Assembly (NCBI RefSeq): GCF_013409935.1
Contig: NZ_JACCCO010000003.1
Coordinates: forward strand, 496,001 to 560,000
Direction of reading: 5' to 3'
Source of the DNA: Streptosporangium sandarakinum
Lineage (GTDB): Bacteria; Actinomycetota; Actinomycetes; Streptosporangiales; Streptosporangiaceae
Length of the DNA stretch: 64,000 nucleotides
Made by a program: the position numbers and the translations under genes. This document shows positions 32,421 to 39,315 of the stretch, piece by piece (the stretch's first letter is position 1; every line of letters starts with the position of its first letter). The notes under the pieces are model-generated. The model was not told the DNA's origin, ran no database searches, and worked only from the letters and a program-made list of their open reading frames with translations.

Positions 32421-32435
32421 GACCCGTTTCGTGGA

Positions 32436-32519
32436 TCATCTGAGCCATGGCGGCAGGCAGGCGATGGTCACGGCCAGGTGGTGACGGCAAGCGAGCTTGC
32501 CGTAGCGGGTGGTGACGCC
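32436..32519 (-). pseudogene. C-terminal fragment of an IS5-type transposase
   Basis: Reading leftward from 32519, the frame gives GVTTRYGKLACRHHLAVTIA then CLPPWLR and a stop at 32436-32438. The pattern GV-TRYDKLA-RY-A-V-IA---WLR is the usual C-terminus of IS5-group (ISL2/IS1647-like) DDE transposases. The DDE core is missing here. The bases beyond the stop, GACCCGTTTCGTGGATCA (32421-32438), look like a terminal repeat. The matching central part of such a transposase lies 6.6 kb away at 39082-39297, same orientation. Confidence 0.65.
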
Positions 32520-32527
32520 TGATGCGA

Positions 32528-34288
32528 TCAGCCGGCGAGTTGGGTGGCGAGGAGCCGCGTATAGGCGCCACGGGTGACGAGGAGTTCGGCGTGCGTGCCG
32601 ATCTCGGCGACCCGGCCGTCGTCCAGGACGACGATGCGGTCGGCGGTGCGGATGGTGGACAGACGGTGGGCGATGACCAGGGTGGTGCGGTCGCGGCGGG
32701 CCGCGGTCATGGCGGCGACCTCTTGCTCGCTCTCGGCGTCGAGGTTGGAGACGGCCTCATCCATGATCAGGATGGGGGCGTCCTTGAGGAGGGCGCGGGC
32801 GATGGCGATGCGCTGGCGCTGGCCGCCGGACAGGCGTGCGCCGAGTTCGCCGGGCAGGGTGCCGTAGCCGTCGGGCAGGCCGGCGATGAACGTGTGGGCG
32901 TGGGCGGCGCGGGCGGCGGTCTCCACCTCTTCGTCGGTGGCCTCGGGGCGGCCGAGGCGGATGTTGTCACGCAGCGGGATGTTGAACAGGTAGACGTCCT
33001 GGGGGACGAGGGTGATCAGGCGGCGTAGATCGTCCTGGGGGAAGTCGCGGATGTCGTGGCCGCCGATGGTGATCGTGCCGGCGGTGACGTCCCACATGCG
33101 CATGAGAAGGCTGGCGCAGGTGGATTTGCCCGCTCCGGAGTGGCCGACCAGGGCGACGGTCTCGCCGGGGGCGATGTCGAAGGTGCCGCCGGCGAGCGCT
33201 TCGGGCAGGTCGGGGGCGTAGCGGAAACGGACCGCCTCGAAGCGGACGTGCGGCTCGACGGGGCCGGAGGGTGGGGTGGTGACGCGGTCGGTGACCGGGG
33301 CGGGGGTGTTCAGGATGGTCATGATGCGGTCCCCGGCGGCGATGACGAGGTTGAGGTCGCGGGCCACGTCGGTGACGGCGATGACCGGGGCGAAGGTGGT
33401 GGCGGCCAGGACGACGGCGACGGGGAACAACGCCGGTTGCAGGCTGCCCGCCGAGGTCAGCAGGGCGGCGGTGACGAGCACGGCGAGCATGCCGAGCGTG
33501 GTGGCGGCGTTGGTGGCGGCGTGTTCGAGGCCGGAGCGGCGGCCGTGGGCGAGCTTGGCCTCCAGGAGCCGCCGGTTCTGTTCGCCGAGGCGGTCGAGCT
33601 GGCGGGCTCCGGCGCCGGAGGTGAGCAGCTCCCGCAGGCCCTGAAGGGTGTCGACGGCTTCGGCGTTGAACTCGCCGAGTTCGGCGCGCAGCTTCGCGCC
33701 TTGGGCGGCGGCCCGTTTGCGCAGCCAGGCGGGTAGGAGGGCGAGCAGGATCAGAGCGGGCGCGAGGGCTGCGGCGAGGGCGGGATGGAAGACGGCCAGG
33801 GCACTCAGCGCGGCGACGGGGACGGTGACGGCGCTGATCAGCGGGCTGAGGGTGTGGGCGAACCAGAGCTCCAGCTGCTCGACGTCGGAGATGGCGGCGG
33901 CGCCGAGGTCGCCGGAGCGGCGTTGGAGGAGGTAGCCGGGGGCGAGGCGTTCGAAGGCGGCGTAGACGCGGCCGCGGACGTCGGCCAGCACGCGGAAGGC
34001 GGCCATGTGCGCGAGGTGGGACTCCAGCCACGGGGTGAGGGCCAGGAAGGGCAGGAGGAGGCCGAGAACGATCAGGCCGCCACGCAGGTCGTCGGGTGCG
34101 GCTCCGGTGATGGCGCGGCTGACGACCCACGCGCCGACACCGGCGGAGGCAAGGACGACCAGATGGTGGGCGACGCCGCTGACGATCGCGGTCAGCAGCA
34201 GGGGCCGGTGCGGACCGAGCAGGGCCAGGATGGGCCGAAACCGGGACCCGCCGGGACGGCCGGGCGCGACGGCGGTGGCGGCTGTCAT
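32528..34288 (-). CDS. Exporter-fold ABC half-transporter, second subunit (metallophore uptake, inferred)
   Basis: 586 residues from ATG 34288. About six membrane helices are followed by an ATPase domain: Walker A VALVGHSGAGKSTCASLLMR, Q-loop LVPQDVYLFNIPLRDNIRLG, signature [18 protein letters not shown], Walker B ILIMDEAVSNLDAESEQEV. Although the fold is that of ABC exporters, paired genes next to FecBCD-type components resemble YbtPQ and IrtAB, which import siderophores. It overlaps its partner by ATGA and should form a heterodimer with it. The gene ends eight bases from the transposase fragment. Confidence 0.88.
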   Translation of the reverse strand: MTAATAVAPGRPGGSRFRPILALLGPHRPLLLTAIVSGVAHHLVVLASAGVGAWVVSRAITGAAPDDLRGGLIVLGLLLPFLALTPWLESHLAHMAAFRVLADVRGRVYAAFERLAPGYLLQRRSGDLGAAAISDVEQLELWFAHTLSPLISAVTVPVAALSALAVFHPALAAALAPALILLALLPAWLRKRAAAQGAKLRAELGEFNAEAVDTLQGLRELLTSGAGARQLDRLGEQNRRLLEAKLAHGRRSGLEHAATNAATTLGMLAVLVTAALLTSAGSLQPALFPVAVVLAATTFAPVIAVTDVARDLNLVIAAGDRIMTILNTPAPVTDRVTTPPSGPVEPHVRFEAVRFRYAPDLPEALAGGTFDIAPGETVALVGHSGAGKSTCASLLMRMWDVTAGTITIGGHDIRDFPQDDLRRLITLVPQDVYLFNIPLRDNIRLGRPEATDEEVETAARAAHAHTFIAGLPDGYGTLPGELGARLSGGQRQRIAIARALLKDAPILIMDEAVSNLDAESEQEVAAMTAARRDRTTLVIAHRLSTIRTADRIVVLDDGRVAEIGTHAELLVTRGAYTRLLATQLAG

Positions 34289-39008: not shown

Positions 39009-39025
39009 TTGCCAGCAAGTGGCAA
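39009..39025. promoter_or_regulatory. Nur/Fur-like inverted repeat in the operon promoter
   Basis: TTGCCA, five bases, TGGCAA: a perfect 6-5-6 repeat, with an overlapping TTGCAA-N5-AGCAAG from 39003. The layout equals the tTGCaa-N5-ttGCAa site described for the nickel regulator Nur of Streptomyces. On the minus strand TTGCCA could also be a -35 box with TTATGT 18 bases on, so a bound repressor would block it. The classical actinobacterial iron box (TTAGGTTAGGCTAACCTAA) was not found. Confidence 0.4.
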
Positions 39026-39081
39026 TAGGGAGGCGATGGCTGGAGGCGAGCCTCGGCCCACTCGGCGCGGGCGGGACACTC

Positions 39082-39297
39082 CTTGGGATCCTCGATGCCG
39101 GCTCGCAGATCCTGGCCGGCTCGCGGCGCCGGGACGGCCTCCAGCACGGCGGTGAACCGGGTGCGGTCGTTGGTGTCTCCGCCGCCGGGCACAAAGGCCA
39201 TCGGCGGGCCGCGCCCGTCGATGGCAAGGTGGATCTCAGTGGTCGGTCCGCGCGCGGCGCGGGGATCGAAGGCCCGTGCGCGAGCCGCGCTCAGCGT
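39082..39297 (-). pseudogene. Central fragment of an IS5-type transposase
   Basis: The minus-strand frame from 39297 reads FDPRAARGPTTEIHLAIDGR then GPPMAFVPGGGDTNDRTRFT and AVLEAVPAPR before similarity fades. This equals the segment GGPTTKIHLA-DGRG-P-AFVLTPGQ-GD--F--VL---RVPR found around the first catalytic Asp of IS5-group transposases. The N-terminus is cut by a stop at 39298-39300 and the rest is missing. The missing C-terminus is at 32436-32519, beyond the uptake operon. Confidence 0.65.
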
Positions 39298-39315
39298 TCA
39301 ATGATCACGGAACAT

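What the first reader, a model, noticed from the sequence alone, without database searches (positions are those of the whole stretch)
32421..39300. A complete metallophore-uptake operon sits inside a broken IS5-type transposase
Seen: on the minus strand, the central part of an IS5-group transposase (GPTTEIHLAIDGRG) lies just before the operon at 39082-39297 and the C-terminus (GVTTRYGKLA...WLR, stop) just after it at 32436-32519. Both have the same orientation and the right order. Between them are five genes with ATGA/GTGA overlaps: FecB lipoprotein, FecCD permease, FecE ATPase and two exporter-fold ABC half-transporters. Known: FecBCD-type genes plus YbtPQ/IrtAB-like pairs handle siderophores. 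Inferred: the operon inserted into, or was carried by, an IS, and moved as a cassette. No siderophore synthesis genes are present in this window.
Basis: partly seen in the sequence, partly recalled or inferred. Interest (0 to 1): 0.75.

Follow-up and report, generated by a model that had tools for sequence, protein, structure and literature searches.

The report
Transferred nickel-switch transport operon inside IS
A soil actinomycete carries a five-gene metal-transport operon that came from another lineage, landed inside an old jumping gene, and carries the DNA switch that related bacteria use to sense nickel, so it probably imports nickel rather than iron.

Summary
A five-gene FecB-FecCD-FecE-ABC-ABC operon (window 38865-32528, minus strand) lies between two colinear remnants of one IS; full-length 1.1 kb relatives of that IS occur in the same genome. 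In sister S. pseudovulgare only about 111 bp of the IS is missing at the split. The IS end sits in a CTAG overlapping the stop codon of the DUF202 gene. Seven of nine informative Streptosporangium genomes have the empty site.

The operon is horizontally acquired: 93.7% identical to a copy elsewhere in G013 (fourfold sites 90-93%, rpoB 70%); the FecB tree rejects one Streptosporangium clade (p-AU 7e-27).

The siderophore label is not supported. Nur-like boxes (TTGCAA-N5-TTGCAA, up to 2 mismatches) precede 22 of 30 FecB orthologues examined (shuffles 0.16; up to 3 mismatches 28 of 30, related binding proteins 0 of 16). SodF or a piece of it adjoins 5 of 30. The genome has a Nur orthologue and a perfect box before sodF. 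The exporter-fold pair is nearer CydDC than YbtPQ/IrtAB.

Best reading: a Nur-controlled Fec-type importer of nickel or a nickel chelate, joined into a resident IS by illegitimate recombination. Nickel cargo and joining mechanism are inferred.

The parts
32417..32420 (.). CTAG target of the IS, overlapping the TAG stop of the DUF202 gene
   Evidence: Full-length copies L002 and L003 are bounded by CTAG; IS homology ends here
32421..32520 (-). IS remnant B: right end and transposase C-terminus
   Evidence: 81% nt to L002
32513..32520 (-). Position of the 8-nt word AGGCATCG shared by G009, G013 and the IS (reads AGGCGTCA in this window, so changed here)
32528..34288 (-). ABC half-transporter 2, exporter fold, CydC-like (586 aa, ATG)
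   Evidence: TIGR02868 330.3 bits against cut-off 329.05, the only one of the 25 models shown over its cut-off; MsbA models score more bits (351) but far below theirs
34285..36003 (-). ABC half-transporter 1, exporter fold, CydD-like (572 aa, GTG)
   Evidence: TIGR02857 403.7 bits, best model, cut-off 435 not reached
36000..36743 (-). FecE-type ATPase (247 aa, GTG)
   Evidence: PF00005; best curated model TIGR03873, below cut-off
36740..37849 (-). FecCD-type permease (369 aa, GTG)
   Evidence: PF01032 E 2e-93
37846..38865 (-). FecB-type lipoprotein binding protein (339 aa, ATG)
   Evidence: PF01497 E 1e-14; lipobox-like LTAC seen by eye
38992..39008 (-). Nur-like box TTGCAACTTATGTGCAG (2 mismatches)
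39009..39025 (-). Nur-like box TTGCCACTTGCTGGCAA (2 mismatches)
39114..39260 (-). IS remnant A: central transposase part (IS 624-772)
   Evidence: 78% nt to L002; in G009 the remnant continues to IS 890
32097..32420 (+). Flanking DUF202 gene, host side of the insertion site (frame opens at 32052)
   Evidence: PF02656; adjacent to the AurF-like gene in congeners
39426..40538 (-). Flanking AurF/ferritin-like gene, other host side (start placed by eye)
   Evidence: PF11583 E 6e-16

Best explanation
A metal-import operon of Streptosporangiaceae (binding lipoprotein, permease and ATPase, here with a CydDC-like half-transporter pair) was transferred horizontally into the ancestor of this strain and S. 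pseudovulgare. It was joined into an IS5-type element that already sat at the CTAG in the DUF202 stop codon. About 111 bp of the IS was lost at the join, and the IS then decayed. The operon kept its own promoter region with Nur-like boxes. When nickel is short, the host Nur releases the operator. FecB then binds nickel or a nickel chelate outside the membrane, and FecCD/FecE import it to feed nickel enzymes such as Ni-SOD. The exporter-fold pair is an optional partner, either exporting a ligand or importing one. Shown by sequence: IS split, empty site, transfer, conserved box, Nur orthologue and SodF linkage. Inferred: Nur binding, nickel as cargo, role of the exporter pair, end-joining mechanism.
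For: IS split. Empty site. Transfer: 93.7% nt identity to G013 over window 32514-39042 only; fourfold-site identity G000-G013 of 89.7-93.2% in the five genes against 70.4% rpoB and 71.4% DUF202; one Streptosporangium clade rejected, p-AU 7e-27. Vertical since insertion: G009 operon 94.9-98.0% at fourfold sites, flanks 94.8 and 97.3%. Join: 8-nt word AGGCATCG shared by the IS, G013 downstream DNA and the G009 junction, P about 5e-4 for a random junction. Nur: box up to 2 mismatches in 22 of 30, up to 3 in 28 of 30; two control patterns reach 3 mismatches in 1 and 2 of 30; 100 first-order resamplings give means 0.16 and 1.25 of 30, and 0 of 16 paralogues or distant relatives reach 3. Perfect box 27 nt before the ATG of sodF; SodF or a piece of it within about 1.5 kb of FecB in 5 of 30; Nur orthologue, PDB 3EYY E 1.8e-50, with a YgfZ-type folate-binding-domain neighbour; sodN in 16 of 16 congeners. 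Published box tTGCaa-N5-ttGCAA (passage of PMC3919588) and Nur repression of sodF and nikABCDE (passage of PMC7055735).
Against: No binding, expression or uptake data. 2 of 30 orthologues have no box (G322, G184, best 6 mismatches), and 6 more reach only 3 mismatches. The window's boxes have 2 mismatches each, and in this genome the reversed control pattern gives more hits at up to 2 mismatches (27 against 14 per strand), so the boxes of this genome alone prove nothing. The orthologues are related, so the 30 are not independent, and 10 further matching places were not examined. All three Fec components match 'putative F420-0 transporter' models best, below cut-off. The binding protein's PDB hits are to haem, B12 and ferric-hydroxamate proteins or unnamed ones. 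The left junction shows by eye no more than 2-3 nt of microhomology. The 8-nt word assumes that G013 shows the donor state.
Confidence: 0.68

Rival explanations
1. The IS carried the operon: the operon first entered an IS elsewhere, and the interrupted IS, mobilised in trans by transposase from other copies, transposed as a unit into the CTAG at the DUF202 stop.
For: The right IS end with its CTAG is present, and related IS sequences occur at 10 other places in the same genome.
Against: No second IS::operon was seen, and G013 gave no match to the IS-bearing flanks. The left IS end and its target duplication are lost in both genomes, so transposition of the unit cannot be shown.
Confidence: 0.12
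2. Composite remnant: two separate copies of the IS flanked the operon and each lost the complementary half.
For: Same orientation, and several related copies per genome.
Against: The halves do not overlap. In G009 they leave a gap of about 111 bp out of 1.1 kb, next to both operon ends. Two independent deletions would have to match.
Confidence: 0.06
3. The operon is an iron-siderophore (or corrinoid/F420-related) importer and the TTGCAA boxes are not Nur sites.
For: FecB/FecCD/FecE domain types; best curated models are the putative F420-0 transporter, then B12, haem and siderophore types; binding-protein hits to haem, B12 and ferric-hydroxamate proteins in the PDB.
Against: Box conservation and the sodF linkage; no Rfam family at gathering score in 31500-40600; all three F420-0 cut-offs missed.
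Confidence: 0.22
4. The operon moves as a small site-specific cassette with a core near CAGGCATC at both ends, the IS being hit because it holds nearly the same word.
For: TCAGGCATC flanks the G013 copy on both sides (P 0.005 for two 26-nt windows, computed after seeing it) and the IS holds AGGCATCG at the junction; a weak integrase-like ORF lies beside the G013 copy.
Against: Left copies in G000 and G009 differ from the right ones by 3 and 2 of 11 bases, and a match with up to 2 has P about 0.08; the integrase match is E 0.06; more distant copies were not shown to carry the word.
Confidence: 0.08

Closest known systems
Nur regulon of Streptomyces coelicolor (sodF, nikABCDE)
   Same: 17-bp TTGCAA-N5-TTGCAA type box, Nur orthologue beside a YgfZ-type gene, sodF with a perfect box
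   Different: The target here is a Fec-type importer, not NikABCDE; Nur binding not tested
NiuBDE of Helicobacter pylori (abstract of PMC5140060)
   Same: An ABC nickel importer acquired by horizontal transfer; to my recollection its subunits are of the Fec/Ceu type
   Different: Different phylum; no direct sequence comparison made here
CydDC heterodimeric ABC transporter
   Same: Half-transporter pair; nearest curated models and nearest solved structures by membrane part
   Different: CydD-like subunit below the curated cut-off; sits in a metal-import operon; cytochrome bd genes not examined
YbtPQ / IrtAB siderophore importers with exporter fold
   Same: Exporter-fold half-transporter pair beside metal-chelate uptake
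   Different: Weaker hits than CydDC: IrtA E about 1e-4; 6p6i (YbtPQ by my recollection) E 3e-4
Putative F420-0 ABC transporter (TIGR03868/03869/03873)
   Same: Best curated model for each of the three Fec components
   Different: All three below the curated cut-offs
IS5-type insertion sequences (DUF4096 + DDE_Tnp_1)
   Same: About 1.1 kb, two transposase frames, inverted ends GACC...GGTC, CTAG on both sides
   Different: The copy here is split and decayed; ISfinder not available, so the group is not assigned

Membership tests
Nur regulon | Operator close to tTGCaa-N5-ttGCAA upstream of the target | tested here: met
   Up to 2 mismatches in 22 of 30 orthologues including the window, controls near zero; but no enrichment within this genome alone
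Nur regulon | Nur orthologue in the genome | tested here: met
   L105 to PDB 3EYY E 1.8e-50, YgfZ-type neighbour
Nur regulon | Nickel-dependent binding and repression | not testable with these tools
   Needs EMSA and expression data
Fec-type nickel importer (NiuBDE-like function) | FecB + FecCD + FecE components in one operon | tested here: met
Fec-type nickel importer (NiuBDE-like function) | Nickel as cargo | not testable with these tools
CydDC | Both subunits over the curated NCBIfam cut-offs | tested here: not met
   CydC 330.3 against 329.05, met; CydD 403.7 against 435, not met
Putative F420-0 ABC transporter | Three components over TIGR03868/03869/03873 cut-offs | tested here: not met
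   129.2 against 392.4, 299.7 against 437.35, 255.5 against 372.4
Siderophore importer YbtPQ/IrtAB | Half-transporters nearest to YbtPQ/IrtAB | tested here: not met
   CydD and CydC are nearer in the membrane parts; whole-length search was swamped by eukaryotic ABCB hits, best 60 of 301 shown
IS5-type element | DUF4096 + DDE_Tnp_1 transposase, short inverted ends, CTAG on both sides in full-length relatives | tested here: met
Composite transposon | A complete or overlapping IS copy on each side | tested here: not met
   Complementary, non-overlapping halves
IS-carried passenger operon | Both IS ends with target duplication around the whole unit | tested here: inconclusive
   Right end and CTAG present, left end absent in both genomes

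The most novel reading that the evidence does not exclude
A whole-operon mobile nickel-acquisition module: a Fec-type nickel-chelate importer with its own Nur operator, in some genomes beside sodF, that spreads between Streptosporangiaceae and is in some lineages coupled to ligand biosynthesis (a YcaO/F420-oxidoreductase pair directly upstream in Thermocatellispora) and in others to a CydDC-like pair, which would make it an actinobacterial nickelophore system.
Probability: 0.2. Interest if true: 0.75.

Novelty: new variant of a known kind. Interest (0 to 1): 0.45.

Why it matters
If right, operons that a domain-based reading would label iron-siderophore uptake, present in 38 of 341 family genomes, are part of the nickel response. 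That would add a Fec-type importer to the Nur regulon, for which the passages I read name sodF, nikABCDE and, indirectly, sodN. It also gives a case of a complete operon with its own operator entering a resident IS, with the empty site preserved in relatives. No listing in eight paper searches (titles and abstract starts only) described such an operon in this family.

Tried and rejected
Foreign GC: no signal; codon use not computed. Siderophore synthesis in the window: none recognised by eye among 49 crude gene calls, a caller that missed known genes such as FecE; not searched with models. Riboswitch: no Rfam family at gathering score in 31500-40600. Sigma-70-like promoter and intrinsic terminator in 38850-39450: none found. 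Inverted repeats joining the two operon borders: none among the 25 longest of 200 pairs shown. Composite transposon: disfavoured by complementary halves. Conserved synteny: refuted by 7 empty sites. In 6 of 16 genomes (G006, G007, G010, G013, G014, G015) no AurF-like gene at E up to 1e-30 lay next to DUF202, and in G008 the two genes lie on different contigs; those 7 were dropped as uninformative. Of them G014 keeps a 28-residue AurF-like end 1,053 bp from DUF202 with no room for the operon. The rpoB part read loci on the wrong strand and is void; one search replaces it. The first tree had outgroups with implausibly long branches and was rebuilt without them. The exporter pair is missing (no match of at least 50% identity in the stretch) in 6 of 12 genomes, so it is not core; six more distant loci in the same call also lack it and were left out of that count. 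The reversed-pattern control in the own genome gave more hits than the Nur pattern, so I rely on orthologue conservation. Box statistics use the 30 loci supplied of 40 matching places. Passages of PMC7730460 had nothing on Nur.

Full report
What was checked. The window lies in G000, contig C3:496001-560000. The five genes are present with the stated overlaps.

The IS. The same genome holds two near-identical related elements (L002, L003), about 1.1 kb between CTAG words, with ends GACCTGTTTTGTGGATCA and its inverse and DUF4096 plus DDE_Tnp_1 transposase parts in two frames. Fragment A (window 39260-39114) matches IS 624-772 and fragment B (32520-32417) matches IS 1002-1105 including CTAG. In S. 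pseudovulgare the A side reaches IS 890, with tandem 34-bp copies inside it, to within about 25 nt of the first Nur-like box, so only about 111 bp (891-1001) is missing. In the genus, four IS copies are among the best hits outside this locus for both fragments, with 111-121 bases between the hits. A single split IS is therefore the simplest reading. The right end sits in CTAG overlapping the DUF202 stop, leaving that gene intact.

The site. In G001, G002, G003, G004, G005, G011 and G012 the DUF202 and AurF-like genes lie 56-885 bp apart without the operon. In G000 and G009 the operon lies between them. In G006, G007, G010, G013, G014 and G015 no such neighbour was found at the threshold used, and in G008 the two genes are on different contigs. 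The last 7 were dropped from the count, which leaves 7 empty of 9 informative. So the insertion is best placed on the G000/G009 branch.

The transfer. G013 holds the operon at a different place, 93.7% identical over window 32514-39042 and unmatched outside it apart from ABC-domain cross-matches. Fourfold-site identity is 89.7-93.2% in the five genes, but 70.4% in rpoB and 71.4% in DUF202 (the rpoB figures are void). S. canum and S. minutum copies are at 54-66%, below Nonomuraea zeae and Thermocatellispora at 76-84%. The FecB tree of 30 rows keeps G000/G009/G013 in a starred branch with rows of genus g40, sister to 11 of them at modest support (92/63), and apart from G005/G008; holding Streptosporangium together is rejected (p-AU 7e-27). 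That g40 is Nonomuraea is my inference from the named loci. Operon and flanks show the same divergence between G000 and G009, so they have been inherited together since the insertion.

The junctions. After the last stop codon G013 reads ATCAGGCATCGTCGGG, G009 CTCAGGCATCGCCACC and the full-length IS CAAAGGCATCGCGACC. The shared 8-nt word at the join has P about 5e-4 for a random junction. The upstream junction shows, by eye, no more than 2-3 nt. With the loss of about 111 bp and no long inverted repeat seen joining the borders (25 longest pairs), this looks like illegitimate, microhomology-assisted joining. A 9-bp direct repeat TCAGGCATC flanks the G013 copy (P 0.005, computed after seeing it); it may be chance, and it feeds the site-specific rival.

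Function. Two Nur-like boxes lie at 38992-39008 and 39009-39025. A box within 250 bp upstream of FecB has up to 2 mismatches in 22 and up to 3 in 28 of the 30 loci given, out of 40 matching places in 38 of 341 genomes. Two control patterns reach 3 mismatches in 1 and 2 of 30. First-order resampling (100 rounds) gives means of 0.16 and 1.25 of 30; 16 paralogues or distant relatives give none at up to 3. The two exceptions are G322 (Thermocatellispora) and G184. Against this, within this genome alone the pattern is rarer than its reversed control. A perfect box ends 27 nt before the ATG of sodF. SodF, a piece of it, or a Fur-SodF chimera lies within about 1.5 kb of FecB in 5 of 30 loci (the Fur part of the chimera is below the Pfam cut-off). 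The genome has three Fur-family proteins: L105 is nearest to PDB 3EYY, the S. coelicolor Nur structure, L104 to 3MWM (Zur, recalled), and L106 to peroxide regulators. sodN is in 16 of 16 congeners. The published consensus and targets were read as passages in PMC3919588 and PMC7055735. A passage of PMC4531530 places S. coelicolor nur beside ygfZ, and L105 has a folate-binding-domain neighbour of that type. A nickel ABC importer acquired by transfer, NiuBDE, was read in the abstract of PMC5140060.

The exporter-fold pair. By NCBIfam subunit 1 is nearest CydD (below cut-off); subunit 2 passes the CydC cut-off narrowly, while MsbA models score more bits but far below their own cut-offs. By membrane part alone CydD and CydC are the best models and the nearest solved structures, ahead of IrtA and 6p6i. 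The pair is present in 6 of 12 genomes examined: the window, G009, G013, S. minutum, Thermocatellispora and Spongiactinospora; it is absent at 50% identity or more in S. canum and five Nonomuraea. In Thermocatellispora the operon follows a YcaO protein and an F420-type oxidoreductase whose frame overlaps FecB if FecB starts at L066:9974. A biosynthetic link there is a lead, not a result.

Verdict. The IS is a landing place rather than a demonstrated carrier, and nickel is a better guess than iron. The parts are of known kinds; the combination and its predicted place in the Nur regulon are, as far as the listed searches show, new.

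Noticed in passing
L066:6927-9977: In Thermocatellispora tengchongensis the operon lies directly downstream of a YcaO protein and an LLM-type F420 oxidoreductase and has no Nur-like box upstream of FecB; possible metallophore biosynthesis.
   Followed up: partly
G000:C1:2604658-2606481 and C1:818173-819996 (L107, L121): Two rpoB genes, 96% identical, in the same genome; G004 and G010 also gave two.
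   Followed up: no
L025:13489-14253: In G013 a frame joins a Fur-like part (below the Pfam cut-off) to a Fe/Mn SOD C-terminal part beside the operon, as if a deletion had joined two genes.
   Followed up: partly
L025:5897-6415: Weak phage-integrase-like frame downstream of the G013 operon (Pfam E 0.06).
   Followed up: partly
L024:7585-7652: 34-bp tandem copies inside the decayed IS remnant of S. pseudovulgare.
   Followed up: no
G188:C1:8726265-8728457: One family genome holds three FecB copies, two of them side by side.
   Followed up: no
window 41523-42146 and 42340-42858: Two neighbouring minus-strand frames with similar ends; the window and S. pseudovulgare versions cross-match at 77-79% over about 190 bp.
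   Followed up: no
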